From Mycobacteroides chelonae CCUG 47445 (GTDB lineage Bacteria > Actinomycetota > Actinomycetes > Mycobacteriales > Mycobacteriaceae), in the NCBI RefSeq assembly GCF_001632805.1, contig NZ_CP007220.1, forward strand, positions 744,001-808,000: DNA of 64,000 nucleotides, given 5' to 3'. Under the pieces are notes generated by a model. The model saw only the letters and a list, made by a program, of their open reading frames with translations, had not been told where the DNA came from and searched no databases. Position 1 is the first letter of the stretch; each line of letters starts with the position of its first letter. A program made the position numbers and the translations under genes. Below, piece by piece: positions 20,272 through 39,440 of the stretch.

Positions 20272-21480
<1,209 letters not shown>

Positions 21481-21495
21481 GGAGAACCAGAACCA

Positions 21496-23655
21496 ATGAG
21501 CGCAAACACAATTCAGTGGGACAAGGATGCCGACGGCATCGTCACCCTCACCCTGGACGACCCCAACGGCTCGGCCAACGTGATGAACGACGACTACAAG
21601 CAGTCGATGGCCGCGGCCGTCAAGCGCCTTGTGGAAGAGAAGGATTCGATCACCGGCGTGGTGATCACCAGCGCCAAGAAGACCTTCTTCGCCGGCGGTG
21701 ACCTCACCAAGATCATCCAGATCCAGCCGGAGAACGCCCAGGAGGCCTTCAACGAGGTCGAGGAGATCAAGAAGGACCTGCGCACGCTGGAGACCTTTGG
21801 CCGTCCGGTCGTGGCCGCCATCAACGGTGCCGCCCTCGGCGGTGGCCTGGAGATCGCATTGGCCACGCATCACCGGATCGCGGCCGATGTCAAGGGATCT
21901 CAGATCGGCCTGCCCGAGGTGTCGCTGGGCCTGCTGCCCGGCGGCGGTGGCGTCACCCGCGTGACCCGCATGCTCGGCATCCAGAACGGCTTCGTCACCG
22001 TGTTGGCGCAGGGCACCCGTTTCAACCCGACCAAGGCCAAGGAAGTCGGCCTGATCGATGAGCTGGTTGGCTCCGTCGACGAGCTGATCCCCGCCGCCAA
22101 GGCATGGATCAAGGCGAACCCGGAGGCCGTGCAGCGTTGGGATGTCAAGGGATACAAGATCCCCGGCGGCACCCCGTCCACGCCGGCGCTGGCGGCCATC
22201 CTGCCGTCGTTCCCGTCGAACCTGAAGAAGCAGCTCAAGGGCGCGCCGATGCCGGCCCCGCGGGCCATCCTGGCCGCTGCGGTCGAGGGTGCCCAGGTGG
22301 ACTTCGATACGGCCAGCCGTATCGAGAGCCGCTACTTCACCAGCCTGACCACCGGCCAGGTCGCCAAGAACATGACGCAGGCGTTCTTCTTCGACCTGCA
22401 GACCATCAACGGCGGCGGGTCACGTCCGGACGGCATCGCCAAGCAGGACATCAAGAAGATCGGTGTGCTGGGCGCGGGCATGATGGGCGCCGGTATCGCC
22501 TACGTCTCGGCCAAGGCCGGTTACGACGTCGTCCTGAAGGACGTCTCGCTTGAGGCGGCTCAGAAGGGCAAGGGCTACTCGGAAAAGCTTGAAGAGAAGG
22601 CTCTTTCGCGCGGCAAGACCACCCCGGAGAAGTCCGCGGCGCTGCTGGCGAAGATCACCCCGGCCGCCGATCCTGCCGACCTGGCAGGCGTCGACTTCGT
22701 GATCGAGGCGGTTTTCGAGAACACCGAGCTCAAGCACAAGGTGTTCCAGGAGATCGAGGACGTCGTCGAGCCCAACGCGCTGCTTGGCTCCAACACCTCC
22801 ACCCTGCCCATCACCGGGCTGGCCGCGGGTGTGAAGCGCCAGGAGGACTTCATCGGTATCCACTTCTTCTCGCCCGTCGACAAGATGCCGCTGGTGGAGA
22901 TCATCCGCGGCGAGAAGACCTCGGACGAGGCGCTGGCCCGGGTGTTCGACTACGTGCTGGCGATCAAGAAGACCCCGATTGTCGTCAACGACAGCCGCGG
23001 CTTCTTCACCTCGCGCGTGATCGGCACCTTCGTCAACGAGGCCGTCGCCATGCTGGCCGAGGGCATCGAGCCCTCGACCATCGAGCAGGCCGGCAGCCAG
23101 GCCGGATACCCGGCTCCGCCGCTGCAGCTGTCTGACGAGCTGAATCTGACGCTGATGCAGAAGATCCGCAAGGAGACCGTCGAGGCCGCCAAGGCCGAGG
23201 GCAAGGAACTGCCGGACGACCCGGCGGGCCGTGTCATCGACACGCTGGTGGAGGCGGGCCGTCCGGGCCGCTTGGGTGGTGCCGGCTTCTACGATTACGT
23301 GGACGGCAAGCGCACCGAGCTGTGGCCGGGTCTGCGGGAGACCTTCAAGACCCGCAATGGCGCCGACGCTGCCAACCCGCCGCTGCAGGACCTCATCGAG
23401 CGCATGCTGTTCGCCGAGGCCATCGAGACGCAGAAGTGTTTCGACGAGGGCGTGCTGACCTCGACCGCGGACGCCAACATCGGCTCGATCTTCGGCATCG
23501 GCTTCCCGCCCTGGACCGGCGGTGTGCACCAGTACATCGTTGGGTACGAGGGTCCTGCGGGTAAGGGCAAGGCTGGATTCGTCGCTCGTGCAAAGGAATT
23601 GGCCGCCAAGTACGGCGACCGCTTCACCCCGCCTGCGTCGCTGCTGGACGCGTAG
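21496..23655 (+). CDS. fadB: Multifunctional fatty-acid oxidation protein (enoyl-CoA hydratase / 3-hydroxyacyl-CoA dehydrogenase)
   Basis: 719 residues from the ATG at 21496, ribosome site GGGAG just upstream. Residues 1-190 are a crotonase domain (FFAGGDLTKI, INGAALGGGLEIALA, LPEVSLGLLPGGGG with both Glu positions). From about 315 a Rossmann domain begins (IKKIGVLGAGMMGAGIAYVS), followed by the dehydrogenase signature (GIHFFSPVDKMPLVEII) and a C-terminal 3HCDH region. It hydrates enoyl-CoA and oxidises the 3-hydroxyacyl-CoA with NAD, and pairs with FadA in the same operon. A terminator follows directly. Confidence 0.97.
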   Translation: MSANTIQWDKDADGIVTLTLDDPNGSANVMNDDYKQSMAAAVKRLVEEKDSITGVVITSAKKTFFAGGDLTKIIQIQPENAQEAFNEVEEIKKDLRTLETFGRPVVAAINGAALGGGLEIALATHHRIAADVKGSQIGLPEVSLGLLPGGGGVTRVTRMLGIQNGFVTVLAQGTRFNPTKAKEVGLIDELVGSVDELIPAAKAWIKANPEAVQRWDVKGYKIPGGTPSTPALAAILPSFPSNLKKQLKGAPMPAPRAILAAAVEGAQVDFDTASRIESRYFTSLTTGQVAKNMTQAFFFDLQTINGGGSRPDGIAKQDIKKIGVLGAGMMGAGIAYVSAKAGYDVVLKDVSLEAAQKGKGYSEKLEEKALSRGKTTPEKSAALLAKITPAADPADLAGVDFVIEAVFENTELKHKVFQEIEDVVEPNALLGSNTSTLPITGLAAGVKRQEDFIGIHFFSPVDKMPLVEIIRGEKTSDEALARVFDYVLAIKKTPIVVNDSRGFFTSRVIGTFVNEAVAMLAEGIEPSTIEQAGSQAGYPAPPLQLSDELNLTLMQKIRKETVEAAKAEGKELPDDPAGRVIDTLVEAGRPGRLGGAGFYDYVDGKRTELWPGLRETFKTRNGADAANPPLQDLIERMLFAEAIETQKCFDEGVLTSTADANIGSIFGIGFPPWTGGVHQYIVGYEGPAGKGKAGFVARAKELAAKYGDRFTPPASLLDA

Positions 23656-23670
23656 GTACGGCTCAACGGC

Positions 23671-23715
23671 ACTACAGCCGCTCACCCTCCGGGGTGGGCG
23701 GCTGTAGTCGTTTTA
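23671..23715 (+). terminator. Rho-independent terminator after fadAB
   Basis: Arms at 23671-23687 (ACTACAGCCGCTCACCC) and 23692-23708 pair over 17 positions with one G-T wobble, closed by a TCCG loop. The sequence then runs CGTTTTA. It sits 15 bases after the fadB stop. Confidence 0.9.
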
Positions 23716-23989
23716 GGGCCCGTCCCGACGGGGCGGATGGGGCCCGCCCGATGCATGCCCCCGAAGATTCAGCAGATTTAGAATCGGTTACCAGAAGTGG
23801 CTGGCCCAGTGGCGTGGTCCACGCCACAACGATGGTGGCTGGAGTGGTGGCCCACAAAAAATCATCCAGATCTCGCGGGTTCTCTGTTGGCACTACAGAC
23901 ATAGTTATTGATACTTCGCGTAACCAGATATGAATGGCCAGGTCATGCGGCATTTCTATGTGGTCGTCATATTTGCGGAAACTGGGTTA

Positions 23990-24004
23990 CCGTAAGTCTT
24001 ACGG
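23990..24004. promoter_or_regulatory. 15-base palindrome CCGTAAG-T-CTTACGG
   Basis: Perfect 7-base arms around a central T, 193 bases before the PapA-like gene. A close relative (CCGTAA-G-TTACGG) lies immediately before the SRPBCC gene at 36409, and both are flanked by TA on the left and GAA on the right. Probably a repressor operator; the regulator is unknown. Confidence 0.6.
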
Positions 24005-24023
24005 GAAGTTGCTGCGATATGGC

Positions 24024-24038
24024 GTAACGCGGCGTTAC
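24024..24038. promoter_or_regulatory. 15-base palindrome GTAACGC-G-GCGTTAC
   Basis: Perfect 7-base arms around a central G, 19 bases after the palindrome at 23990. The centre-to-centre distance is 34 bases. Two different palindromes in one promoter region suggest two regulators or cooperative binding. Confidence 0.55.
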
Positions 24039-24197
24039 TCACAGTTCACTAGCTATTTCTTTGATGGAACGTACCTTTGCGAGATATTTATTCGCTACGC
24101 TGCTCGCGATGATTGATGTCTTTGCCGTCCGCACTGTCGCAGGCAAATCGAGCATGGTCACGCTCGTAGTCCAGATCGCTGAACAGGAATAGGGACG

Positions 24198-25589
24198 ATG
24201 GTTACACTTGGAACGATCCACGATTGGCGCCCCAAGCCGGGAACCGTCATTTCCTGGAGCGCTTCGCCAGGCGCCCGCCAGGCCGCCGCACAGGCTCCTA
24301 CCAGCACGGTGCCCCCCAGCTATCAGCAGGCCCAGCATGTGCGTTCGTACCGGGATCTGGCCCGTCAGGACCGCGAGATGGCCCGTTTGGGAATCGGCTC
24401 CTGGGATGTCCCGGGCATCTGCGATATCGATGCGATGACTGCGGCGATCAACGCGCATCTGCGACGGCACGACACCTACCACTCGTGGTTCGAGTTCGAC
24501 ACGGCCGACAACATCGTCCGGCATGTAATCGAGGATCCGGAGACCATCGGCTTCGTGCCGCAGGATCACGGGCTGCAGGGGCCCGACGAGATCCGCGCGC
24601 ATCTGCTGCGTACCTCGGGTACTCCGCTCTCGTGGGACTGCTTCACGTTCGGGGTGATTCAACGTGCGGACCACTTCACGGTGTACCTGAGCGTTGATCA
24701 TCTCCATACCGACGGCATGTCGACCGGCATCCTGTACGTCGAGATCCAGTTGATGTACGCCAGCCTGGTGCACGGGGCGGCACTGGAACTTCCGGCGCCC
24801 GCGGGATATCTGGATTTCTCTGCCCGTGAGCGCGCGCATAACCAGTCCATGACCCTGGACTCCTTCGAGGTGCGGAGCTGGCTGGGCTACGCGCGGGACA
24901 ACGGGGGCACCCTGCCCGACTTCGTCCTGCCCCTCGGCGACCGATCTGTGCCGAACGTCGGCGGCATGGTCGCGGCCCAGCTGCTCGACGCCGAGCAGAC
25001 GGTGGCATTCGAAAAGGCTTGTGAACAGGCGGGTGTGCGATTCAGCGGTGGTGTGTTCGCCTGCACCGCACTGATCGACCGCGAGCTCACCGGCGCAGAC
25101 GTCTTCTACGGCATCACCCCGTACGACACCCGCAGCACCGCCGAGGAGCAGATGTCGGTGGGCTGGTACGCGAGCTTCATTCCCTTCGTGGTGGATATGT
25201 CGGAGGACTCCTTTGCGCGGGTCGCGCGATCGGCGCAGAAGTCGTTCGACGAATGCCAGCCGCTGGCCAAGGTTCCGTTTGAGCGCGCCCTGGAGCTCGC
25301 CGGTCCTGAGTCGGGGTTGGCCGCCCCGGAATACGTGGTTCCGATGGTCTCTTTCCTGGATGCGCGCAAGATCCCGGTGAGTGCCGAATGGGATCGCATC
25401 AATGGCGGAATCTACGGGGACAGCCGTTCTTCCGATCAGGTGTGTATGTGGGTCAACAGGTTTGAGAATGAAACCAACCTGACCATCTCGTTCCCCGACA
25501 ACGCTGTCGCCCGTGAATCTGTGTCGCGCTATTTCGATGTGGCTCGCAGGGTGTATCAGCGTGTCGCGCAGTCACAGTTCGTTTCCTGA
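24198..25589 (+). CDS. PapA-type acyltransferase (condensation-domain superfamily)
   Basis: 463 residues. The N-terminus (GTIHDWRPKPGTVISW and STVPPSYQQAQHVR) matches the start of mycobacterial polyketide-associated proteins such as PapA1-PapA3. The catalytic HxxxDG motif is VDHLHTDG, His168 to Gly173. PapA enzymes move acyl chains from acyl-CoA or polyketide carriers to trehalose and related cores of surface lipids. There is no polyketide synthase, FadD or sulfotransferase beside it, so the acyl donor must come from elsewhere. It is the first of four co-directional genes ending with an MmpL exporter. Confidence 0.9.
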   Translation: MVTLGTIHDWRPKPGTVISWSASPGARQAAAQAPTSTVPPSYQQAQHVRSYRDLARQDREMARLGIGSWDVPGICDIDAMTAAINAHLRRHDTYHSWFEFDTADNIVRHVIEDPETIGFVPQDHGLQGPDEIRAHLLRTSGTPLSWDCFTFGVIQRADHFTVYLSVDHLHTDGMSTGILYVEIQLMYASLVHGAALELPAPAGYLDFSARERAHNQSMTLDSFEVRSWLGYARDNGGTLPDFVLPLGDRSVPNVGGMVAAQLLDAEQTVAFEKACEQAGVRFSGGVFACTALIDRELTGADVFYGITPYDTRSTAEEQMSVGWYASFIPFVVDMSEDSFARVARSAQKSFDECQPLAKVPFERALELAGPESGLAAPEYVVPMVSFLDARKIPVSAEWDRINGGIYGDSRSSDQVCMWVNRFENETNLTISFPDNAVARESVSRYFDVARRVYQRVAQSQFVS

Positions 25590-25640
25590 TTCCGCGGCAT
25601 CGCGGCCGCATTTGAGCAGCAGTGAAAGGTTGACACCGTC

Positions 25641-26840
25641 ATGAGCACAAGCCTTGATGTCGCGGTGAATGGAACCAGCTCACCGGATTTCGACAATGTT
25701 CGGCGCGCGTTTGCACTGAATTTCCTGGAGAACGACGAGCTGGGCGCGGCGGTCGCGATCTGGGTCGACGGTGAGCTCGTCGTCAATCTGTGGGCCGGAT
25801 GGGCCGACGAGGCCCGCACCCGTCCCTGGACCGAGGACACCTTGGCGCCGGTGTATTCGGGCACCAAGGGATTGATGAGCACCTGCGTTCACATGCTGAT
25901 CGAGCGCGGTGTGCTCGACCTGCATGCGCCGGTGGCGCGGTACTGGCCCGAATTCGGCCAGGCCGGTAAGGAATCCATCACGCTGGCCATGGTGCTCGGA
26001 CACCGCTCGGGTGTGATCGGGCCGCGCACCAGGTTGACGCCGGAGCAGGCCGCCAACTGGGACGAAGTGTGCGAGCACATCGCCAGAGCGACACCGTGGT
26101 GGGAGCCCGGCACCGCGCAGGGTTACCACATGGCGACGTTCGGGTTCATCCTGGGCGAGGTCGTCCGCCGCACCACGGGTAAGACGCTCGGGCAGTTTCT
26201 GCGTACCGAGATTGCCGAGCCGTACGGGCTCGACGTACACGTCGGGCTCCCGCACAGCGAGCACCACCGGTGCGCGGAGCTGGTCAACAAGCCGTTCCTG
26301 CGCGATGTGTTCCGCGGCGCGCCTGGGGAGTTCGAGTGCATGAGCGACCACCCACTGGCGGGCCCGCTCATCTCGGGCGACTTCATCCCCGATGATGAGA
26401 TAGCGCGCAAGGACATTGCGATGTGGCGGGCGCTGGAGTTCCCCGGGACCAACGCCCACGTTTCGGCGCTGGGCATGGCGACCTTCTACAACGCGATGGC
26501 GCTCGGCAAGCTGCTCAGCCACGATCACATGGATGTGGTGCGGGTGTCGCAGGGCGGGTTCGATCCCGACGTCGTGCTGGGACCCCGGGTGGCCAACCAC
26601 GGATGGGGCTTGGGCTACATGCTCAATCAGCGCTGCTATGCCGGGCCAAATCAGAAGACCTTCGGGCACGGCGGATCCGGTGGTTCATACGCCTTCGTCG
26701 ACCTCGAGCACCGCATCGGCTACTCGTATGTGATGAACCAGTTCGACGTGACCAAGGCAGATGCCGATCCTCGCAGTGTGCGACTGATCAACGAGCTTTA
26801 CGCCACGTTGGGGGTGTCACCGGCGGGAGAGTCGCTGTGA
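25641..26840 (+). CDS. Serine beta-lactamase-fold hydrolase / esterase (EstB/LipD-like)
   Basis: 399 residues. The class C beta-lactamase fold is indicated by the SxxK motif in VYSGTKG (Ser73, Lys76), a Tyr in the later GTAQGYHMATFGF segment, and an HGGSGG motif in place of KTG. There is no signal peptide, so it is probably cytoplasmic rather than a penicillinase. In mycobacteria such proteins act as lipases, esterases or acyl transfer enzymes. Placed between two condensation-type acyltransferases and overlapping the second (GTGA at 26837-26840), it may trim or transfer acyl chains during assembly of the same lipid. Confidence 0.87.
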   Translation: MSTSLDVAVNGTSSPDFDNVRRAFALNFLENDELGAAVAIWVDGELVVNLWAGWADEARTRPWTEDTLAPVYSGTKGLMSTCVHMLIERGVLDLHAPVARYWPEFGQAGKESITLAMVLGHRSGVIGPRTRLTPEQAANWDEVCEHIARATPWWEPGTAQGYHMATFGFILGEVVRRTTGKTLGQFLRTEIAEPYGLDVHVGLPHSEHHRCAELVNKPFLRDVFRGAPGEFECMSDHPLAGPLISGDFIPDDEIARKDIAMWRALEFPGTNAHVSALGMATFYNAMALGKLLSHDHMDVVRVSQGGFDPDVVLGPRVANHGWGLGYMLNQRCYAGPNQKTFGHGGSGGSYAFVDLEHRIGYSYVMNQFDVTKADADPRSVRLINELYATLGVSPAGESL

Positions 26841-28201
26841 CGGCCACGATTCCGGCCGTCGTCGCTCCGTCGCGCGCGAAATCCCTGTCGATCTCTCATC
26901 TGGACTTCGTTGATCAGGCCTCTTTCCTGGGTCTGCGGGCCACCGAGCTGTCCACGTTGGGGCAGATGGTCTGGATCTATGAACGCGATATCGACACCGA
27001 TCGGTTGCGCAGATTCCATGCCAACCTCGGCCTGGGATTGTTCGGGCGCCGAATCGAACGTTCCCGCTTGCCTTTCGGTCGCCATCGCTGGGTACTGGAC
27101 CCGGCGTGCCACCCCATCGACGTCGAGCTCGCACCACTGCCGCGCGCCGAACTGCAGGATTGGGTGCACCGGCATGCCCAGCTGCCGATCGATCCCGAGC
27201 ACGGCCCGTCCTGGCGACTCGGTGTCACCAGATTCACCGATGGTGCGACCGCGGTGAGCCTGGTGGTCTCGCACAGCATCGCCGACGGTGTGGGCATGTG
27301 CCGGGCCATCGCCGATGCCGCCAATGACGCGAACCTCCCGTTGGGTTACGGTGCACCGCGGTCGCGCAAGCGCATGCGCAGCGTGCGGGAGGACTTGCGT
27401 CGCACCAGGCATGACCTGCCGGATACCGCGCGGGCCTTTCGAAAAGCCACCAAGATGTTGAGCTCGCGGCGCCAGGACATCAAGCATGCGGGCCGGCCCG
27501 CTACCGAGGAGCACATCGAACAGATTCCGGCGGTGACCGTGTATCTGGACGAAAGCCATTGGGACACACACGCACGTGAGCGTGGCGGTACCAGCAATTC
27601 GCTGGTCGGTGCGTTTGCCGCTCAGCTCGCCACCAAGGTAGGCAGGCTCGGTCCGGATGGCCGGGTCACTCTGTCCATGCCGGTCAATGAGCGCACCGAG
27701 GGCGATCACCGTGCCAACGCCATGACATCGGTGATGTTCGCGATCGATCCGGCGGAACTGACCACCGATCTACGCGGAATCCGCAGAGCCACCAAGGAGG
27801 TGCTCTCCGGCCTGCGGGACGCCCCCGACGAAAAGTGGGCACTGCTCCCGCTGACGCCGTTCATCCCGAAGGCGGCTGCACGCCGGCTTGCCGATGTGGC
27901 GCTGGAGTACAACGACTATCCCGTCGGATGCTCGAATGTGGGGCCGCTGGATCCCGATGTGAATCGTCCCGACGGGACACATGCCGACTACGTGTTCTGC
28001 AAACTGGCCGAGCAACGGGTGCGGCCCGACAAGGTGCTGAGCACCTACGGGCAGCTCTTCCTCGCGTCCGGGAGGGTCAACGAGAAGATTTTCCTGGCCG
28101 TTGTCGGCTACCAACCCGATGTGATCGAATCACGCGCCGACCTGACCAATCTGCTGACCGAGACGCTCGAGGACTTCGGTATGCGCGGCGTGATCGAGTA
28201 G
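26837..28201 (+). CDS. Condensation/WES-type acyltransferase
   Basis: 454 residues from the GTG at 26837, coupled to the previous gene by a four-base overlap. The HxxxDG motif is VSHSIADGVG (His146 to Gly151). The N-terminal segment LSISHLDFVDQASFLG and C-terminal YPVGCSNVGPLDPDV resemble wax-ester synthase/diacylglycerol acyltransferase and condensation families. It is unlike the PapA protein at 24198 outside the motif, so the operon encodes two distinct acyl transfer steps. The acceptor is unknown. Confidence 0.82.
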   Translation: MTATIPAVVAPSRAKSLSISHLDFVDQASFLGLRATELSTLGQMVWIYERDIDTDRLRRFHANLGLGLFGRRIERSRLPFGRHRWVLDPACHPIDVELAPLPRAELQDWVHRHAQLPIDPEHGPSWRLGVTRFTDGATAVSLVVSHSIADGVGMCRAIADAANDANLPLGYGAPRSRKRMRSVREDLRRTRHDLPDTARAFRKATKMLSSRRQDIKHAGRPATEEHIEQIPAVTVYLDESHWDTHARERGGTSNSLVGAFAAQLATKVGRLGPDGRVTLSMPVNERTEGDHRANAMTSVMFAIDPAELTTDLRGIRRATKEVLSGLRDAPDEKWALLPLTPFIPKAAARRLADVALEYNDYPVGCSNVGPLDPDVNRPDGTHADYVFCKLAEQRVRPDKVLSTYGQLFLASGRVNEKIFLAVVGYQPDVIESRADLTNLLTETLEDFGMRGVIE

Positions 28202-28203
28202 TC

Positions 28204-31200
28204 GTGGCGGACAACACAGGTGGCATCTACGGACTGATCGCTCGGATCGTCCGGAAGGCCCCTGTCGCCGTCATCGGGGTGTGGATCGCTCTGGCTGCGG
28301 TCTTGGCGCTGACCGCGCCCTCTCTGCAGAAGGCCATCGAGGAGCACCCCGTCGATCTGCTGCCCAAAGATGCTCCCGTCATGGAGACCACGCGGCAGAT
28401 GGTCGAGTCGTTCCAGGAGTCGGGTGCGCAGAACATTCTGTTGATCGTCCTCACCAATGAGAACGGGCTGACTCCCGCCGACGAGCAGACCTATCGAATC
28501 CTCGCGGCCCGAATGCGTGAAGACACCCGCGACGTCAGCATGGTGCAGGACTTCATCACCAAACCGATGCTGCGCGAGATGATGTCGAGTACCGATGGCA
28601 AGGCGTGGTATCTGCCGGTCGGGTTGCAGGGCGAGCTTGCTACCCCCGAATCCGGCAAGGCCTACGTGGGCGCCCTGAAGATCATCAAGGAGGCGACCGC
28701 AGGCACCACCCTGAATGCCTTCACGACGGGGCCCACTGCCACCGTCGGGGATTTGACGGTGGTCGGAGAGCGTGACCTGCACAAGGTCGAAATCACCACG
28801 GCGGCTTTAGTTCTTCTGATCTTGCTGATCGTCTACCGCAATCCGGTGACGATGATGCTACCGCTGATCGTGGTGGGTGTCTCACTCGGCATCGCCCAGG
28901 CCGCCGTTGGTGGGCTGGCGCAGATGGGTCTGAGTATCTCGAACCAGACGCTGACCTTCATGACCGCGATGATGATGGGCGCGGGCGTCGACTACGCGGT
29001 CTTTCTGATCAGTCGATATCACGAATACGTCAAGCAGGGCATGGATTCCGACAGTGCGGTGACCGCAGCGCTGGAGTCCATAGGCAAGGTGGTCGCGGCG
29101 TCGGCGGCGACGGTAGCGGTGACCTTCCTGGGCATGGGCTTCACCAAGCTGGGGATCCTGTCCACCATCGGTCCGGCGCTGAGCGTGTCCATCCTGATCG
29201 CGTTCGTGGCGTCGGTGACCTTCCTGCCCGCGGTGCTGGTCCTGGTGGGTCGCCGAGGCTGGGTCAAGCCGAGAAAGGCGTATGCCAACAAGATTTGGCA
29301 CCGCTCGGGCATCAATATCGTCAAACGCCCTGGCGCACACCTGGCGGTCAGCCTGGTCATTCTGATCGTCCTCGCCACGTGCGGCGCAATGGTGAAGTTC
29401 GGGTACGACGACCGCAAGAACCTGCCGCCCTGGGCCGACAGCAATCTGGGCTATGCCGCGATCGAAAAGCACTTCCCGGTGAATTCGACCTTGCCGCAAT
29501 ACCTCTACATCAAGTCACCGCACGATCTACGCACTCCGCGCGGGCTGGCCGATCTGGAGCAGATGGCCGCGCGGGTGAGTCAGGTTCCCGGTGTGGACAA
29601 GGTGCGGGGCATCACGCGCCCCACGGGTGAGCCGCTGGAGGAAGCCAAGCTGTCCTATCAGGCTGGCGAGGTCGGCGGGAAGCTGGGCGATGCGTCGAAT
29701 CTGATCGATGCGCGCACCAGGGACTTGGACAAGCTCGCCGCGGGCGGACACACGTTGGCGGACAAGCTCGGTGAGGTCCGCAACTCGGTGAAGAACTCAC
29801 TGGGGACGGCGCGCGCACTGGTCGAGGTGCTGGCGCAGTTGCGCGGCAGCGGTAGGACGGGCACCCTCGCCGATCTGGACTCGGTGGACAAGCTGGTCAC
29901 CAGCATGCATTCCCTTGGCGAGGCCATCGAGGCCAACGCCCAGGGCGCCAGCGAGGTGTACGGCTGGATCGAACCCGTCGCTCGTGTGCTGGTCGGCAAC
30001 CCGGCCTGTGAGATGGACCCCGCGTGCCGCTCCTCGCGAGACGAGATGAACAAGTTCCTGGAGACCAAACAGGATGGCACCAGGGACAGGATCGTCGAGC
30101 TCGGCCGTGAACTGAAGGCCGTCGACAATGACAAGCAGATCAGTTCGACCATCGCCCGACTGCGCACCGCGCTCAACGCCATTGACACGAATCTGCGCCG
30201 GTTAGGTCTGTCCGACTCCTACGGCATCCAGCAGAAGTTCGCCGAAGTCCTGACCGGGGTCAATTCGCTGGCCGATGGCAGCGCACAGCTGGCCGAGGGT
30301 GTGCAGATGCTGGTGGACCAGACCAAGCAGATGGGCGGCCAGTTGGGCGATGCCTCAACGCTCCTGGTCGCCGCCAAGCGCGATGCGGCACCCGGATCGA
30401 TGTCCGGCTTTTACATCCCGCAGCAGGTACTTACCCAAGACTCCTTCAAGACCGCCGCGGCGGCGTTTGTCTCGGCCGATGGCCATGCGGTGCGTTATCT
30501 GGTCCAGAGCAACCTGAATCCGTTCAGTCCCGAGGCAATGGATCAGGTCCGCGCCATCCAGGATGCGGCCCACAGCGCACAACCCAACACCACACTGTCC
30601 GATGCGTCCATCTCGATGGCCGGGTTGTCGGCGATGTACAACGACATTCGCAACTATTACAACCACGACCTGCGATTCATCATCGTGTTGACGGTGATCG
30701 TGGTGCTGCTCATCCTCGTCGCTCTGCTGCGGGCCATTGTCGCGCCGCTGTATCTCATTGGTTCGGTGATCATTTCGTACGCCTCGGCGGTGGGTATCGG
30801 GGTGATCGCGTTCCAGTTCATCGGTGGACAACCGTTGAGTTGGAGTGTGCCGGGTATGGCGTTCATCGTGCTGGTGGCGGTGGGCGCGGACTACAACCTG
30901 TTGTTCATCTCGCGCATCCGTGACGAATCGCCCGACGGTATCCGTTCCGGGGTCATCAAGACGGTCAAGTCGACCGGCGGTGTGATCACCTCTGCCGGAG
31001 TCATTTTCGCCGCATCGATGTTCGGCCTGCTGATCGGAAACCTGCAGTCGATGGTCGAAGCGGGCTTCATCATCGGTATGGGCCTGCTCCTGGACACCTT
31101 CCTGGTGCGCACCATCACCATTCCTGCTCTGGTTGTGCTGTGTGGGCAGGCCAACTGGTGGCCCTCTGCGATCGTGGAACCTTGGTTCCAGAAGCATTTT

Positions 31201-31335
31201 TCGCGCTCGAAGGTTGACGACCAGGATGCGGCGCCGTCGGAGTCGGAGGAGCCTGAGTGTCCTAGCGGCGATCCGATACTCGAGGAGCCGCTGATTTCCG
31301 TTTCCCGCGAAGCCGAGCTCGCAGGCCGTCGATGA
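28204..31335 (+). CDS. MmpL family RND lipid transporter
   Basis: 1043 residues from a GTG at 28204, two bases after the previous stop. Two RND halves are visible. Each has an N-terminal helix and large extracytoplasmic loop (helix 1 near APVAVIGVWIALAAVLAL), then a five-helix bundle. The first bundle ends with MMMGAGVDYAVFLISRYHEY and the second with VAVGADYNLLFISRIRDE, the proton-relay Asp-Tyr pairs of MmpL proteins. The second loop holds a long helical region (residues about 470-780) with two cysteines (NPACEMDPACRSS). There is no large C-terminal cytoplasmic domain. It presumably flips the lipid made by the three genes before it toward the periplasm. Confidence 0.95.
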   Translation: MADNTGGIYGLIARIVRKAPVAVIGVWIALAAVLALTAPSLQKAIEEHPVDLLPKDAPVMETTRQMVESFQESGAQNILLIVLTNENGLTPADEQTYRILAARMREDTRDVSMVQDFITKPMLREMMSSTDGKAWYLPVGLQGELATPESGKAYVGALKIIKEATAGTTLNAFTTGPTATVGDLTVVGERDLHKVEITTAALVLLILLIVYRNPVTMMLPLIVVGVSLGIAQAAVGGLAQMGLSISNQTLTFMTAMMMGAGVDYAVFLISRYHEYVKQGMDSDSAVTAALESIGKVVAASAATVAVTFLGMGFTKLGILSTIGPALSVSILIAFVASVTFLPAVLVLVGRRGWVKPRKAYANKIWHRSGINIVKRPGAHLAVSLVILIVLATCGAMVKFGYDDRKNLPPWADSNLGYAAIEKHFPVNSTLPQYLYIKSPHDLRTPRGLADLEQMAARVSQVPGVDKVRGITRPTGEPLEEAKLSYQAGEVGGKLGDASNLIDARTRDLDKLAAGGHTLADKLGEVRNSVKNSLGTARALVEVLAQLRGSGRTGTLADLDSVDKLVTSMHSLGEAIEANAQGASEVYGWIEPVARVLVGNPACEMDPACRSSRDEMNKFLETKQDGTRDRIVELGRELKAVDNDKQISSTIARLRTALNAIDTNLRRLGLSDSYGIQQKFAEVLTGVNSLADGSAQLAEGVQMLVDQTKQMGGQLGDASTLLVAAKRDAAPGSMSGFYIPQQVLTQDSFKTAAAAFVSADGHAVRYLVQSNLNPFSPEAMDQVRAIQDAAHSAQPNTTLSDASISMAGLSAMYNDIRNYYNHDLRFIIVLTVIVVLLILVALLRAIVAPLYLIGSVIISYASAVGIGVIAFQFIGGQPLSWSVPGMAFIVLVAVGADYNLLFISRIRDESPDGIRSGVIKTVKSTGGVITSAGVIFAASMFGLLIGNLQSMVEAGFIIGMGLLLDTFLVRTITIPALVVLCGQANWWPSAIVEPWFQKHFSRSKVDDQDAAPSESEEPECPSGDPILEEPLISVSREAELAGRR

Positions 31336-31930
31336 CGATCGCGAGTCCGTCCTCGAAGTCGGCATCGAAGTCGGGTTCATAAAGCTCCGAGAAGACCTCC
31401 AAGATCGCCGGATACTTCTGGAGATCGAGCTTGGCGATTAGATTCTCTTCGGTGTACGGATTGGGACCCGGATACTCCGAGCCATCGCGAGCCTGTTGTT
31501 CGATGGTGAAACCGATTGTGTAGTGGTGGATCACGGGAGATAGCCGGGCCGCTTCGCGAACAGTGAATCCGGCCGACGTCATGGCATCGAGCATCGGCTC
31601 AAGCATGTCGGCGGCGTTGGTCACAAAGGTGCCTGCCAGGATCCGGGCGCCCTGGTGGTAGCGCAGCATCGCCTGCCGTAGTGCACGAGCGCCGTTGGCC
31701 AGGAAGATATCCCATGGCGCCGAAGTGTCGTCGAAGGCATCATGGGCATCGCGCATGATCGCCTCACCCATGAGGTCGATGAGTTCGCGCCGGTTCTTCA
31801 CATGCCAGTACAGCGCCGGTGCCTGCACGCCGAGGGATGCCGCCAATGCCCGCATGGTGAGGCCGTCGCTGCCCTTTTCGTCGAGCAGGGCCAGCCCGGC
31901 TCGCGCGATCGTCTCCCGATTCAAAATCAC
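31262..31930 (-). CDS. TetR-class regulator (TetR_C type), divergent from a flavin monooxygenase
   Basis: 222 residues. The helix-turn-helix is LTMRALAASLGVQAPALYWH, identical in style to the class of tetracycline repressors (PALYWHVKNRRELI). The C-terminal domain (PVIHHYTIGFTIEQQ, with His residues) is of the TetR_C type that binds tetracycline-like drugs. Its gene ends 74 bases inside the 3' end of the MmpL gene (convergent overlap), which is unusual. It is divergent from the monooxygenase at 31996, and the intergenic region holds two candidate operators. Confidence 0.88.
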   Translation of the reverse strand: MILNRETIARAGLALLDEKGSDGLTMRALAASLGVQAPALYWHVKNRRELIDLMGEAIMRDAHDAFDDTSAPWDIFLANGARALRQAMLRYHQGARILAGTFVTNAADMLEPMLDAMTSAGFTVREAARLSPVIHHYTIGFTIEQQARDGSEYPGPNPYTEENLIAKLDLQKYPAILEVFSELYEPDFDADFEDGLAIVIDGLRARLRGKRKSAAPRVSDRR

Positions 31931-34471: not shown

Positions 34472-34611
34472 GTTAATTAGACGCTCTGTCTATTACGGAT
34501 TCATCGCCGGAGAATCTCGCTTGAACGAATGCTCTGGTGATTCGAATTAATCCGATAGTACTTTGCGCGTGAATCGTTTTACGCCTGCTATCGGACAGGG
34601 TGTTCACGCTC

Positions 34612-36366
34612 ATGAGAGTTCTACGGTTCTTGGTTGTCGTGTCCGTCCTAGTGGCCATCGGGATAACATTTCCATCTGTCTCGCAAGCAGATACGGCCAT
34701 CGAAGCAGAATCGATGTCCTATACCGGCGGCGGCGGAGGGGCCTGGGCGGACGGTAGTGCGTCCGGTGGCACCCTCCTGGGCCTATACGGTCAGAATGCT
34801 ATTGCCACAAACACGGTGTGGCTCCAAACTTCGTCGAGAATAGTTATTCGGGCGCGTGGGCAGCAATGTCTGGGCGCGCCGGTTATGCGCATCAGTGTCG
34901 ACAATGTCGAGGTGGGCAATTTCACCGTATCGGCAAATGGCCTGACAGATTACACGGTGGATTTGTCCATCGCCGAAGGGGCGCATTCCATCACCATTAC
35001 GAACAGCGCGGCGTACAGCACGTTCTTCTGCGGGCGAATGTTGGTGCTGGACAAGGTGACGGTGGTGTGGACCGCGCCCACCACCACGCCGACAACCACC
35101 ACGGCGACGCCCTCGGACTGCGCCGTGAATGAGTACCAGGCCAGCTACTACAACAACACCGCGTTGAGCGGTGACCCGGTGGTGCGACAGTGCGAGACAT
35201 CGGTAGGTGGCTACTTCCGAAGTGCCGCACCGGTATCCGGTGTCAACACGTCGAACTGGGGTGCCCAATATGTCGGAACGATCCACTTTCCGGTCAGTGG
35301 CAACTATGTGTTCAGTGCCGACACCGGGAACATGGCGGTGCGGGCGTGGCTTGACGGACAACTGATGATCGACAAGGGGGCAGTGAGCTGGGGCCGAAAT
35401 CTAGCCGCCAAGAACGTCACTGCGGGTGATCATGCGGTTCAGGTTGCCTTCTGGAAGTCGTCCGGCGATTCCTTCGAGTTCTTCTCGGTCTCGCAAATGG
35501 GGCCGGGACCGGCCAGCACCAACGGCAACTACTTCTCGGCAGACTCCTTCTGGAACACACCGATCCCCGCCGACGCCCAGATCGACTCTCGGTCCGACGG
35601 TTGGGTGGCGATGCTGGGAAACCAGAATGGCATCTCGCTGAACAGCAGCATGTGGACGCAACCCATCTACGTCGCGCCACCGGGCACCCCTACCCGCGCC
35701 ATCCGGATCACGAACTCGAACAAGAACCTGACGGTTCCGTACCTGCCGTCCTATAGGGCGAGTCCCGACGGTGACAGCGCGCTGATCATTGTGGATCAGG
35801 CGAGGGGGTGTGCCTACGAGCTGGAGATGTTCAACAATTCCTCCTCGGCGGTGGCCTCCGCCTCCTATCACGCGTACACGGGCACCGGCGGACACACGTC
35901 GGGGCCGGCGCATGCGGGCGGCGAGCTGTCCTGGCTGGCCGGGCTCATCAGATCGTCCGAGGTGAACGCGGGCGGCATCAACCACGCGCTGCGCTATGCG
36001 CTGCCCATCGGTTCACCCCGATTCGCCTATCCGGGCACCCGTTCCGACGGCACCACACCCGGCGGCATTCCGCAGGGGACCAGGATGCGGCTCGACCCGT
36101 CTCTGAATCTGGACCAGTTCGCCCTGACTCCGTTTCAGCGGATGGTGGCCGTGGCCTTGCAGAACTACGGGGGCTACAACGCCGATACCGCAGGGGTGCT
36201 CGCCGTCGCCACCGAGAACACCATGGCCTCGGCGCCTTTCAACCTGCCGCTTTCGGGGCTGCCGCAGGCCCTCGTCCAGCATCTGCAGTTCCTCAAACCC
36301 ACTGTGGCGTCTACTGACATCCGGTTGGACGAGCAGGCCGACCAGACCTGTGCGCAACAGCAGTAG
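34612..36366 (+). CDS. Secreted protein: carbohydrate-binding-like domain + PA14 domain + conserved C-terminal domain
   Basis: 584 residues from the ATG at 34612; a GTG at 34600 would add four residues. A signal peptide (VLRFLVVVSVLVAIG, cleavage near SQADT) is followed by a CBM-like jelly-roll at about 28-155 (IEAESMSYTGGGGGAW, SITITN, VLDKVTVVW). A Thr-rich linker comes next, then a PA14-like beta domain at about 172-300 (YQASYYNNTALSGDP, ISFPVSGNYVFS-type strand, VRAWLDGQLMID). The C-terminal 285 residues contain SFWNTPIPADAQID, GGHTSGPAHAGGEL, NHALRYAL and YPGTRSDGT. Shared with the lipoprotein at 36918. It is probably exported and binds or cleaves envelope or environmental glycan; catalytic residues unknown. 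Confidence 0.8.
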   Translation: MRVLRFLVVVSVLVAIGITFPSVSQADTAIEAESMSYTGGGGGAWADGSASGGTLLGLYGQNAIATNTVWLQTSSRIVIRARGQQCLGAPVMRISVDNVEVGNFTVSANGLTDYTVDLSIAEGAHSITITNSAAYSTFFCGRMLVLDKVTVVWTAPTTTPTTTTATPSDCAVNEYQASYYNNTALSGDPVVRQCETSVGGYFRSAAPVSGVNTSNWGAQYVGTIHFPVSGNYVFSADTGNMAVRAWLDGQLMIDKGAVSWGRNLAAKNVTAGDHAVQVAFWKSSGDSFEFFSVSQMGPGPASTNGNYFSADSFWNTPIPADAQIDSRSDGWVAMLGNQNGISLNSSMWTQPIYVAPPGTPTRAIRITNSNKNLTVPYLPSYRASPDGDSALIIVDQARGCAYELEMFNNSSSAVASASYHAYTGTGGHTSGPAHAGGELSWLAGLIRSSEVNAGGINHALRYALPIGSPRFAYPGTRSDGTTPGGIPQGTRMRLDPSLNLDQFALTPFQRMVAVALQNYGGYNADTAGVLAVATENTMASAPFNLPLSGLPQALVQHLQFLKPTVASTDIRLDEQADQTCAQQQ

Positions 36367-36393
36367 GGCCCGTTGTTTACAACCCAACCGATA

Positions 36394-36406
36394 CCGTAAG
36401 TTACGG
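36394..36406. promoter_or_regulatory. 13-base palindrome CCGTAA-G-TTACGG before the SRPBCC gene
   Basis: Perfect 6-base arms, ending three bases before the ATG at 36409. It shares TACCGTAAG and TTACGGGAA with the palindrome at 23990. At this distance the site must overlap the transcript start or a leaderless start codon. Confidence 0.6.
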
Positions 36407-36408
36407 GA

Positions 36409-36894
36409 ATGCCTTCGCTTGATGCAGTCGATGAAGCCTTCCTGTCCAGCGCTCCTGTGCGAGCCAGTCACACCATCTCGGTACCGGTGTCCGCCGACAC
36501 CGTGTGGCGTGAGCTGACCAACGACACCACATTGCGGTGGTTGGCGCCGGGTATCAGGGTCGTGTGGGGTAGCCCCCGAACCGGGGTCGGAGCGGTCCGC
36601 AAGATCGGGCCCGCCGTGGGACCCAAGGTGAACGAGCACTACTTCCTCTGGGAGGAAGGACGGCGGAAGGCTTTCTACGTGACGAGCTTGCCGGTGCCTG
36701 CGCCCGGCTTGTGTGCCTTCGCTGAGGACTACGTGGTGACGCCGACGGATCGCGGTGCCGACTTCACCTGGGCATGGGCCATCGACGGCACGGGACCGAT
36801 TCGTAATGCCACTCCCGCGGTGAACGCCATCGTCGGATTCTCGATGAAGCGCACTCAGCGGTACTTCGAGAAGATTGCCGCCGCCGGAAGGTAA
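36409..36894 (+). CDS. SRPBCC family protein
   Basis: 161 residues from the ATG at 36409. The fold pattern is present: HTISVPVSADTVWRELTND at the N-terminus, a central sheet (GVGAVRKIGP, FYVTSLPVP) and a closing helix (VGFSMKRTQRYFEKIAA). Such proteins bind hydrophobic ligands. It is set between two paralogous PA14-domain genes and carries its own palindrome at the start codon. Whether it belongs with those genes or is an independent insertion is unclear. Confidence 0.8.
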   Translation: MPSLDAVDEAFLSSAPVRASHTISVPVSADTVWRELTNDTTLRWLAPGIRVVWGSPRTGVGAVRKIGPAVGPKVNEHYFLWEEGRRKAFYVTSLPVPAPGLCAFAEDYVVTPTDRGADFTWAWAIDGTGPIRNATPAVNAIVGFSMKRTQRYFEKIAAAGR

Positions 36895-36917
36895 GAGTTC
36901 GCCCGTACAGTGAATCC

Positions 36918-38267
36918 GTGCGTGCGTTCGTTCTGCTTGCGGTGTTCCTGGTGGTGGCGGCGTGTGCGCCTGCCCGGAATGAGACGGACGCGGCGGCCCA
37001 GAACCCTTGCGATGTAGGCCAATACTGGACGCGGTACTACAACAACACCGATCATTCGGGCAGCGCGGTGCTCGCTCGATGCGAGTACTCGGTCGGCGGG
37101 AACTTCACGGGATCTCCAGCACTGGGCGTACAGGCCGACGGATTCTCGGCCGATGCCACCGGCTCGCTGCGATTCCCGGTGACGGGCCAGTATCAGATCG
37201 CCTCGATGAGCGGTGGTGTCGTCGCGCGTGTATGGCTGGACGGCGAGCTGATCTTCGATCATGCCGATACCCGTGACTGGGGGACCGATCTCGCCACACG
37301 CATCGTAGAGGCCGGTGTGCATGCGGTCCGCGTCAGCTATGCCGGTGCCAGCGGGCCCGCGGTGCAAGAGTTCTCGGTGTCTCAAGTCGCGCTTGGTCCG
37401 GCTTCGGTCAACGGCAACTACTTCGCGGCGAATTCATTCCTGAATCAGCCCCTCCCGCCCAATCCCGCGGTCGACCCGCGCTCGCCGAATTGGGTTGCCG
37501 CGCTGATGCATCACCCGGATGTCAAGGCAATCGACGTCAACGAGGACATCTGGACCACCGCCGTGTACCACGCGCCCGCGGGCACCCCGACCCGGACCGT
37601 CGCCGTCCGTAACAGCGGGAAGTCGATCGATGTCCCCTACCTGCCGCATTATCTGCCCACCCAGGACGCCGACGCCCATATCGCGATCATCGACGACACC
37701 ACCGGGTGTGAATACGAATTCCAGTCCTTCAAGCCGGATGCGATGTCGGCCATCGCCCAGGCCACCTACCGGGTGAACACCGGATCGGGCGGACACGTCA
37801 GTGGGCCCGCGCATTCGGGCGGCGAGCTGTCCTACCTGGCCGGGCTGATCACGCCGGAGGATGTGCAAGCCGGAGTGATTGATCACGCGCTGCGATTCGC
37901 CATCCCGATCAACGCGCCCACCTACGTGTACCCGGGTACCCGGTCGGACGGCACGGTCCTCGATGGGGTGCCGGAGGGGATCAGAATTCAGCTCGATCCG
38001 ACCCTGGATTTGCGAACACTGAACCTGAGCCCCTTCCAGCAGATGGTGGCGACCGCGCTGCAGAAGTATGGCGCGTTCGACGCCGATGTCGCCAAGACCT
38101 TCTCGCTGACGGCGCGCAGCGTGACCGACGGCACCCGGTACCCGACCCGGGTCGACGATCTGCCGCGCGAGTTGATCGGGCATCTTCGTTTCCTCACGCC
38201 GTCGACCAGCTCCACGGATATCCAGCTGGACACCGCTGCGGACCAGGGCTGCCGACAGCAGCACTAG
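36918..38267 (+). CDS. PA14-domain lipoprotein, paralogue of the protein at 34612
   Basis: 449 residues from a GTG at 36918. The signal ends FLVVAAC, so Cys16 is the lipid-attachment site. A PA14-like domain (about 30-165: YYNNTDHSGSAVLARCEYSV, LRFPVTGQYQIAS, VARVWLDGELIFD) is followed by the same C-terminal domain as its paralogue. Shared motifs are NGNYFAANSFLNQPL, GGHVSGPAHSGGELSYLAGL, DHALRFAIP and YPGTRSDGT. It lacks the CBM-like domain and is membrane-anchored, so the pair gives one secreted and one anchored version. Function unknown. Confidence 0.8.
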   Translation: MRAFVLLAVFLVVAACAPARNETDAAAQNPCDVGQYWTRYYNNTDHSGSAVLARCEYSVGGNFTGSPALGVQADGFSADATGSLRFPVTGQYQIASMSGGVVARVWLDGELIFDHADTRDWGTDLATRIVEAGVHAVRVSYAGASGPAVQEFSVSQVALGPASVNGNYFAANSFLNQPLPPNPAVDPRSPNWVAALMHHPDVKAIDVNEDIWTTAVYHAPAGTPTRTVAVRNSGKSIDVPYLPHYLPTQDADAHIAIIDDTTGCEYEFQSFKPDAMSAIAQATYRVNTGSGGHVSGPAHSGGELSYLAGLITPEDVQAGVIDHALRFAIPINAPTYVYPGTRSDGTVLDGVPEGIRIQLDPTLDLRTLNLSPFQQMVATALQKYGAFDADVAKTFSLTARSVTDGTRYPTRVDDLPRELIGHLRFLTPSTSSTDIQLDTAADQGCRQQH

Positions 38268-38294: not shown

Positions 38295-39440
38295 GTGTCG
38301 CGACGCTCTGTGGCTGCTTATGGCTCTTTTCTGGCCACGAGAAAATTCGGGGCGCTGGATGGCCTGCGGGCGCTGAGCGTCCTGGCGGTGATCTGGCACC
38401 ACACATCAGGGACGCCCGGTCCGAGGATCTCGCACAGCGGATTCATGGGCGTGGACCTCTTCTTCGCGATCAGTGGCTTTCTCATCACCACACTGCTGAT
38501 GCGTGAACGTGGTCGCACAGCGGACATCTCGCTGCGAAACTTCTATGCGCGCAGGGCGTTGCGAATCTTCCCGCTGTACTACGCGGTGCTGGCCCTGTAT
38601 GTCCTGCTGGTGTTCGCCACCGAACGCGGTACGCCGAAGGGCGAGCAATTCTTCCGGAACCTGCCCGCATTCCTGACCTACACCGTCAACTGGTTCGTCG
38701 ACCTATCCGCCGGTACCTCGGTGCCGTTCTACTTTTCGTGGTCGCTGTCCACCGAGGAACAGTTCTATCTGTTGTGGCCGCCCCTATTGGTCGGCGCGCT
38801 GCTCTTGGGCAAGGGAAGAATCGGGCCCTCGCTCGCAGTGCTGTTCGTCCTGGTCGTGGTATCGGTCGGTGCGGGCGTGTTCCTGGATACCCGGGTGCTG
38901 CCCTGGCGCATTCTCGCGAGCCTGTCCTTGCCCATCCTGCTCGGCGCCGCCTCCGCGATCGTAGTGAACACGCGTCGCGGCTACGCAGGAGTCTCCGCGG
39001 TGCTGGGGTGGTGGTGGTCCGCCCCGGCCGTGTTCGCGGTGATGATCGGCGCGCTGTGGTTCGGTGCGCCGCCTTGGTCGATACAGGTCATCATGGTAAC
39101 CGCGGTCACCGCCGTGACCATCCGCGAGGACACCCTGATGCACCCTGTGCTGACCTGGCGGCCGCTGGCATTCATCGGCGTCATCAGTTACGGGATCTAC
39201 CTGATGCACATGTTGTGCGCCAACGTCGTTCGCCGCGTGGTACACGAGGAGCAGGGGTTGACGCTGTGCGCCGGGACAACGATTCTCGTCATCGCAGTTG
39301 CCTATGTGAGCTTCCGGTACTTCGAGACACCCCTGCTACGTATCAAGCGCCGCTTCGAATCACCTGCGGAGCGTTCCGGTGACGAACTGTCCCGGACCGC
39401 TAACCAATCGCCGGTCCGAGCAGGTCGTCGGCATCGGTGA
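38295..39440 (+). CDS. Acyltransferase 3 (OafA/YrhL-like) membrane protein
   Basis: 381 residues from a GTG at 38295. The family signature is LDGLRALSVLAVIWHH with the catalytic His near residue 35, then GVDLFFAISGFLITTLL and FYARRALRIFPLYY, with about ten membrane helices and a WSLSTEEQFYLLWP motif. AT3 proteins transfer acetyl or succinyl groups to surface glycans or lipids. There is no SGNH domain. Its last 41 bases overlap the 3' end of ercc3 on the other strand. It may decorate a product of this accessory block. Confidence 0.9.
   Translation: MSRRSVAAYGSFLATRKFGALDGLRALSVLAVIWHHTSGTPGPRISHSGFMGVDLFFAISGFLITTLLMRERGRTADISLRNFYARRALRIFPLYYAVLALYVLLVFATERGTPKGEQFFRNLPAFLTYTVNWFVDLSAGTSVPFYFSWSLSTEEQFYLLWPPLLVGALLLGKGRIGPSLAVLFVLVVVSVGAGVFLDTRVLPWRILASLSLPILLGAASAIVVNTRRGYAGVSAVLGWWWSAPAVFAVMIGALWFGAPPWSIQVIMVTAVTAVTIREDTLMHPVLTWRPLAFIGVISYGIYLMHMLCANVVRRVVHEEQGLTLCAGTTILVIAVAYVSFRYFETPLLRIKRRFESPAERSGDELSRTANQSPVRAGRRHR

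What the first reader, a model, noticed from the sequence alone, without database searches (positions are those of the whole stretch)
24198..31335. Orphan lipid assembly and export operon: PapA, serine hydrolase, WES-like acyltransferase, MmpL
Four tightly packed genes encode two different HxxxDG acyltransferases, a beta-lactamase-fold hydrolase and an MmpL exporter. Known PapA/MmpL loci (sulfolipid, polyacyltrehalose, trehalose polyphleates, glycopeptidolipid) include a polyketide synthase or NRPS and a FadD; none is here. It could make and export an undescribed acylated glycolipid from acyl chains supplied in trans, with the hydrolase as a second acyl-transfer or editing enzyme.
Basis: partly seen in the sequence, partly recalled or inferred. 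Interest (0 to 1): 0.7.

Follow-up and report, generated by a model that had tools for sequence, protein, structure and literature searches.

The report
Known surface-glycolipid operon of Mycobacteroides
The four genes are the counterpart of an already published gene set of Mycobacterium abscessus whose exporter is needed for a surface glycolipid called GDND, so the locus is not new, although its three lipid-handling enzymes still have no proven job.

Summary
In detail: PapA, a beta-lactamase-fold esterase (LipP type), a second HxxxDG acyltransferase (WES type) and an MmpL lie head to tail at 24198-31335, and one Pks and one FadD query found nothing in the 64 kb window. The reading 'undescribed glycolipid' does not hold. 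Gene order, protein kind and the 463-aa PapA length match M. abscessus MAB_0852-MAB_0855, followed by the TetR gene MAB_0856c. [quoted passage not shown] I saw this in passages of later papers; the 2018 paper is not held. Best mechanism (inferred): PapA and WES each add one ordinary C18 acyl chain, which would explain the missing Pks, and MmpL exports the product. The LipP step is open. New here, and modest: in a tree of 58 PapAs, one clade of 23 shows no Pks hit near 23 of 23, the other shows one near 33 of 35. For 22 of the 23 a WES-type gene lies nearby. So Pks-free PapA/WES loci look like an old lineage in the genus. Three more distant genomes carry PapA and LipP side by side without a Pks hit. 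The UniProt name of MAB_0854 ('FadD28 and polyketide synthase') looks wrong.

The parts
24198..25589 (+). PapA-type acyltransferase (HxxxDG begins at H168); nearest solved structure by sequence Mtb PapA2; counterpart of MAB_0852
   Evidence: PF00668; PDB 6aef PapA2 E 1.1e-143; MAB_0852 listed as 'PapA2', 463 aa
25641..26840 (+). LipP-type beta-lactamase-fold esterase (S73-x-x-K), no N-terminal signal seen by eye; counterpart of MAB_0853
   Evidence: PF00144; best PDB 5gmx carboxylesterase E 4e-86; MAB_0853 listed as 'esterase/lipase LipP'
26837..28201 (+). WES/tgs-type HxxxDG acyltransferase (begins at H146); 4-base overlap with the esterase gene; counterpart of MAB_0854
   Evidence: TIGR02946 below cut-off; AlphaFold model with condensation/PapA5/WS-DGAT fold; H146 and D150 invariant in 46 rows
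28204..31335 (+). MmpL exporter; M. abscessus homologue P0005 94% identical; counterpart of MAB_0855 = mmpL8_MAB
   Evidence: PF03176, TIGR00833 over cut-off; P0005
31262..31930 (-). TetR regulator, convergent with and overlapping mmpL; counterpart of MAB_0856c; not found in 1 of 7 named loci, so not an obligate part
   Evidence: PF00440/PF02909; MAB_0856c TetR; missing in L004
23656..24197 (.). 542-base intergenic with an AT-richer stretch; likely promoter/regulatory region (in M. abscessus a GplR1 peak is reported within 500 nt of the MAB_0852 start site)
   Evidence: GC 0.45 at 23900-24099 against 0.555-0.69 in the windows over the four genes; conserved blocks in 8 aligned sequences; GplR1 table (definition)
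24024..24038 (.). palindrome GTAACG-CGG-CGTTAC, only exact copy of this pattern in the genome; candidate operator, not proven
20272..23655 (+). fadA-fadB, conserved upstream neighbours (fatty-acid oxidation), 542 bases before papA; probably not part of the lipid operon

Best explanation
This is the Mycobacteroides mmpL8/GDND operon. PapA and the WES-type protein each esterify one ordinary long-chain acyl group (C18:0 or C18:1, taken as acyl-CoA from general lipid metabolism) onto a glycosylated C19-diol core, and MmpL carries the diacylated glycolipid across the plasma membrane. LipP is cytosolic (no signal seen by eye) and most likely trims or edits acyl groups, or does an acyl transfer. Shown elsewhere: the M. 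abscessus counterpart of the mmpL is needed for GDND, and the four genes respond together to GplR1. Inferred here: which enzyme adds which chain, the LipP step, and that the product in this species is GDND. Source of sugar, glycosyltransferase and diol: not in the operon and not found.
For: Order and kind of MAB_0852-0855 as named in the GplR1 regulon table, MAB_0852 = 463 aa, MAB_0856c = TetR; window PapA is also 463 aa. M. abscessus homologues: MmpL 94%, WES 84% (P0136). GDND needs MmpL8_MAB and contains oleic and stearic acids (passages; the acids). Two intact HxxxDG enzymes for two acyl groups. PapA resembles PapA2, which adds palmitate in sulfolipid (passage). No Pks or FadD hit in the window with one query each. 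All four genes fall (log2 -1.9 to -2.3) without GplR1.
Against: The 2018 GDND paper itself is not held, so structure and locus are second-hand; reviews differ on whether MmpL8 acts in making or moving GDND. In the listings and passages that I saw no gene of the operon other than mmpL is tied to GDND by experiment. I saw no MAB_ sequence under its locus tag; orthology rests on order, kind, PapA length and identity to M. abscessus proteins whose tags were not shown. WES/tgs-type enzymes can also make storage lipid; one paper counts MAB_0854 as a tgs.
Confidence: 0.8

Rival explanations
1. The operon makes a different, still undescribed acylated glycolipid in this species, with GDND loss in the M. 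abscessus mmpL mutant being indirect or strain-specific.
For: One review calls GDND unique to M. abscessus; the window is another Mycobacteroides; LipP and a second acyltransferase have no assigned step.
Against: MmpL 94% identical to an M. abscessus homologue, same gene order; conserved in 7 of 7 named loci of relatives.
Confidence: 0.12
2. WES and LipP are a storage-lipid (triacylglycerol/wax) pair, synthase and lipase, that share the operon with PapA and MmpL by regulation only.
For: WES is called a tgs in one paper. LipP-like proteins occur in 170 of 248 genomes of the genus at E 1e-90, and 23 of 23 fetched stretches around such genes outside the cassettes showed no PapA, WES or MmpL (L051, L053, L058; 20).
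Against: 4-base overlap of LipP and WES genes and co-regulation of all four. WES-type genes lie with PapA for 22 of 23 PapAs of the Pks-free clade and also in 9 Pks-linked loci. Cassette LipPs form their own clade (99/96).
Confidence: 0.12
3. The chain is made by a Pks encoded elsewhere in the genome, and the operon is a detached part of an ordinary Pks-type pathway.
For: Two other PapA loci in this genome have a Pks (L044, L045), so Pks products are likely in the cell.
Against: Those loci have their own PapA; L044 also an MmpL. PapAs of the window's clade have no Pks hit nearby in 23 of 23 cases. GDND acyl groups are reported as ordinary oleic and stearic acids.
Confidence: 0.06

Closest known systems
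mmpL8_MAB locus of M. abscessus (MAB_0852-MAB_0855, MAB_0856c), GDND
   Same: Gene order, protein kinds, PapA length 463 aa, TetR gene on the other strand after it; homologues 94% (MmpL) and 84% (WES)
   Different: Another Mycobacteroides species; product not measured here
Pks-linked PapA-WES-WES loci of other mycobacteria (L028-L035, L047)
   Same: PapA, WES-type proteins and, in 6 of the 9 stretches, an MmpL, 39-54% identical
   Different: Carry a Pks (2095 aa in L031), often a glycosyltransferase, Gap or FadD; no LipP hit; PapA in the other clade
Sulfolipid (pks2/papA1/papA2/mmpL8) and DAT/PAT loci of M. tuberculosis (partly passage, rest recalled)
   Same: PapA2-type enzyme using a straight acyl chain, MmpL export
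   Different: Pks and the membrane acyltransferase Chp; here no Pks and a beta-lactamase-fold LipP instead
PapA-MmpL-Pks-FadD locus in the same genome (L044), probably trehalose polyphleate type
   Same: PapA plus MmpL (48% to the window MmpL)
   Different: Pks, FadD and Gap present; the name TPP is recalled, not tested

Membership tests
mmpL8_MAB/GDND locus | Order papA2-lipP-(tgs-like)-mmpL followed by tetR on the other strand | tested here: met
mmpL8_MAB/GDND locus | High identity to the M. abscessus proteins | tested here: met
   MmpL 94%, WES 84%; locus tags of these records not shown; PapA and LipP not compared with named M. abscessus records
mmpL8_MAB/GDND locus | GDND produced, and lost with mmpL | not testable with these tools
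   reported for M. abscessus in papers seen as passages
Pks-linked PapA/MmpL lipid locus (SL, PAT, TPP, LOS type) | Linked Pks and FadD | tested here: not met
   no hit in 64 kb with one Pks and one FadD query
Pks-linked PapA/MmpL lipid locus (SL, PAT, TPP, LOS type) | PapA in the Pks-linked clade | tested here: not met
   other clade, branch 100/100
WS/DGAT (wax ester/TAG synthase) | HxxxDG motif and condensation-type fold | tested here: met
WS/DGAT (wax ester/TAG synthase) | Over the curated family cut-off | tested here: not met
   TIGR02946 28.3 of 310 bits; no Pfam match at E 0.001
LipL or LipE (NCBIfam equivalogs) | Over the curated cut-off | tested here: not met
   177.7 of 650 and 87.8 of 750 bits
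LipP | Closest to the LipP-like esterase common in the genus | tested here: inconclusive
   62-71% identical proteins in the listed matches outside Mycobacteroides (capped list), but the cassette copies are a separate clade; the name LipP comes from the MAB_0853 annotation

The most novel reading that the evidence does not exclude
Mycobacteria have a second, old way of building acylated surface glycolipids: a Pks-free PapA clade paired with WES-type acyltransferases that uses ordinary fatty acyl chains, with LipP recruited in one branch as a third acyl-transfer or editing enzyme. GDND would be its one known product, and the related loci in other mycobacteria would make unreported lipids.
Probability: 0.35. 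Interest if true: 0.5.

Novelty: already known. Interest (0 to 1): 0.3.

Why it matters
GDND is tied to macrophage adhesion and phagosome damage in M. abscessus, yet I found no experiment that assigns its assembly enzymes. The anatomy gives a testable assignment (two acyltransferases, two C18 chains) and explains the missing Pks. The Pks-free PapA/WES clade points to further candidate lipid loci in other mycobacteria, and a misleading database name (MAB_0854) is flagged.

Tried and rejected
Rejected: that the lipid is undescribed. Rejected: that the 15-base palindrome at 24024 is the GplR1 site; the paper gives a 23-nt motif with outer TCTGG. The best matches to that motif upstream of papA have 2 of 10 fixed bases wrong in 10 of 11 regions and 3 in one; 9 of the 11 lie at the same distance (269) from papA. 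That is weak. Rejected for now: a leader peptide before papA; an open frame of at least 40 codons is there in 11 of 11 but without a conserved start. The palindrome is exact in 6 of 11, has 1-2 mismatches at the same place in 3, and is missing there in L004 (no TetR found) and L060 (has TetR), so a link to TetR is not cleanly supported. With up to 3 mismatches the window holds fewer matches (7) than shuffles (mean 17), so only the exact match is of interest. A paper search for 2-octadecanol-type glycolipids led nowhere.

Results against my reading: the MmpL tree does not follow Pks presence and the WES tree needs 3 changes, so the cassette genes do not share one history; the MmpLs of G416 and G257 do not join the Mycobacteroides MmpLs. 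In the PapA tree 2 of 35 in the Pks-linked clade (L090, L091) had no Pks hit in 20 kb. L056_PapA_3486 was counted as Pks-linked although its Pks lies about 8 kb away. 'No Pks' means no hit of one Pks query in the stretch fetched. PapA loci were chosen from top hits, not at random; L049 and L050 are short, so 'no Pks' is weaker there. Rows left out of the trees: L008 and L059, L065-L067 (window copy, or contigs of the same length as L005, L001, L003, L007), the short stretches L009-L027, and tblastn hits under half of the query or under 300 (PapA), 380 (WES) or 800 (MmpL) residues. LipP loci outside the cassettes: 23 fetched of the many listed.

Errors of mine: the query called LLM was taken out of frame, so its identities mean nothing and are not used; it was dropped. 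The 1166-aa MmpL line is the longest ORF, not the gene start.

Papers, passages only: PMC10194924, PMC6463170, PMC9846648, PMC10913753, PMC8928063, PMC6839843, PMC13001253, PMC12098619, PMC3602546, PMC8262987, PMC6928860, PMC9316637, PMC9401124, PMC10117111; PMC12455991 passages plus its section 10. Other papers were seen as listings only. Dubois 2018 was not seen; what I know of its abstract is recalled. That a Pks-free PapA/WES class is not described rests alone, in an open-licence library.

Full report
Anatomy. Four genes on the + strand: PapA 24198-25589, LipP-type esterase 25641-26840, WES-type acyltransferase 26837-28201, MmpL 28204-31335, with gaps of 51, -4 and 2 bases. A TetR gene (31262-31930, -) overlaps the mmpL end. 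Upstream, after 542 bases, lie fadB and fadA. WES is below family cut-offs, but its model (mean pLDDT 83.8, pTM 0.86) has an AzeD dehydratase (TM-score 0.62 by query length) as first PDB match, and condensation domains, plant HCTs, Mtb PapA5 and a WS/DGAT among the 50 listed. H146 and D150 are invariant in 46 rows, window included. PapA's best PDB sequence match is Mtb PapA2 (E 1.1e-143). The esterase's best is a carboxylesterase.

Host and conservation. The 7 named relatives found are all titled Mycobacteroides or Mycobacterium sp.. The order fadA-fadB-PapA-LipP-WES-MmpL is present in 7 of 7; TetR and the FAD monooxygenase follow in 6 of 7. Seven further unnamed copies keep the order, four of them on contigs of the same length as L001, L003, L005 and L007, so I count 11 distinct genomes with the window. 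Among 248 genomes of the wider genus, 8 (own included) hold an MmpL at 92% or more; the next is 60%.

What it is. Published M. abscessus genes match one by one. MAB_0852 'PapA2', MAB_0853 'esterase/lipase LipP', MAB_0854 and MAB_0855 'MmpL family' all fall in a GplR1 mutant, with a GplR1 peak near MAB_0852 (within 500 nt of a start site by the paper's definition). MAB_0852 is 463 aa, as in the window. MAB_0856c is a TetR. The M. abscessus MmpL homologue is 94% identical (P0005) and the WES homologue 84% (P0136). MAB_0855 is mmpL8_MAB, needed for GDND, a glycolipid with oleic and stearic acids, and for full intracellular fitness (passages). Lsr2 also controls mmpL8, in keeping with the low G+C (0.45) of the stretch at 23900-24099 (the AT preference of Lsr2 is recalled).

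Mechanism. Two intact HxxxDG acyltransferases and a diacylated product with C18 chains suggest one acylation each, from acyl-CoA, then MmpL export. This also accounts for the lack of Pks and FadD hits. The order of steps, the acceptor and the LipP role are inference. LipP has the S-x-x-K of beta-lactamase-fold esterases and no signal peptide that I could see by eye; hydrolysis, editing and acyl transfer are all open.

Comparison across the genus. Fetched loci with PapA fall into kinds. (a) The Mycobacteroides operon. (b) PapA-LipP without a Pks hit in G416 (L048, with WES and a divergent MmpL), G257 (L049, divergent MmpL; a WES lies on another contig, L046) and G399 (L050, two WES; the contig ends just past PapA, and no MmpL was found). 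(c) PapA with 2-5 WES and MmpL without a Pks hit, flanked by an acyl-CoA dehydrogenase (Pfam in L038; 92-95% tblastn matches in L039 and L041), a small NYN-like gene and a response-regulator-like gene (L038, L039, L041; the last two labels are by eye); L052 also has PapA, WES and MmpL and no Pks hit. (d) PapA with WES but without a Pks or MmpL hit in 20 kb (L036, L037, L092, L093). (e) Pks-linked PapA-WES-WES, often with FadD, glycosyltransferase, Gap and MmpL (L028-L035, L047). (f) Pks-linked PapA without WES (for example L040, L044, L045, L055-L057 and most of the stretches).

Trees. In the first PapA tree (38 rows) the Pks label needed one change: 17 with Pks, 21 without. I then fetched 20 more PapA loci as an out-of-sample check. 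Two (L092, L093) fell in the Pks-free clade, and neither has a Pks hit. Eighteen fell in the other clade, 16 with Pks and 2 without. Over 58 PapAs: 23 of 23 without a Pks hit (22 stretches; L037 holds two PapAs) against 33 of 35 with, branch support 100/100, 2 changes in all (for the window itself the label rests). For 22 of the 23 a WES-type gene lies in the fetched stretch; L049 has none in its 6.7 kb. The 14 cassette LipPs form one side of a branch against 23 others (99/96). In 23 of 23 stretches around those others no PapA, WES or MmpL was found (L051, L053, L058; 20 stretches of 9-12 kb). LipP-like proteins occur in 170 of 248 genomes at E 1e-90. The MmpL and WES trees do not follow the Pks split cleanly.

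Annotation point. MAB_0854 is given the UniProt name 'Fatty acyl-AMP ligase FadD28 and polyketide synthase', and what seems the same name, cut off in the listing, sits on the 454-aa Mycobacteroides salmoniphilum homologue P0129. A 454-aa HxxxDG protein is neither; another paper counts MAB_0854 as a tgs.

Verdict. Observation right, interpretation half right: the lipid is most likely the known GDND. The residual interest is the enzyme assignment and the Pks-free PapA/WES lineage.

Noticed in passing
26837-28201 (counterpart MAB_0854): Database name 'FadD28 and polyketide synthase' for a 454-aa HxxxDG acyltransferase looks like a misannotation.
   Followed up: partly
23656-24197: Intergenic with an AT-richer stretch, blocks conserved in 8 aligned sequences, a palindrome at 24024-24038 (single exact copy in the genome) and an open frame of 40 or more codons ending just before papA in 11 of 11.
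   Followed up: partly
31262-31930: The TetR gene varies far more than its neighbours: 96% in L003 but 69-70% in L001 and L002, whose other operon genes are about as close to the window; not found in L004. Looks like allele exchange.
   Followed up: no
34600-38267: Two PA14-domain proteins around a Polyketide_cyc2 protein, then an Acyl_transf_3 membrane acyltransferase (38295-39440); the first PA14 gene was found in 2 of 7 named loci.
   Followed up: no
L048:1-2393 (G416): About 5 kb from the Pks-free PapA/LipP cassette lie a UDP-galactopyranose mutase and a galactofuranosyltransferase gene.
   Followed up: no
G000:C1 about 2839183 and 3069468: Two of 7 EryCIII-like glycosyltransferase matches lie outside the two clusters (4.227-4.236 and 4.834-4.836 Mb); possible leads for the missing sugar step.
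   Followed up: no
L090, L091: PapA in the Pks-linked clade but without a Pks hit in 20 kb; a Gap-like gene is near.
   Followed up: no
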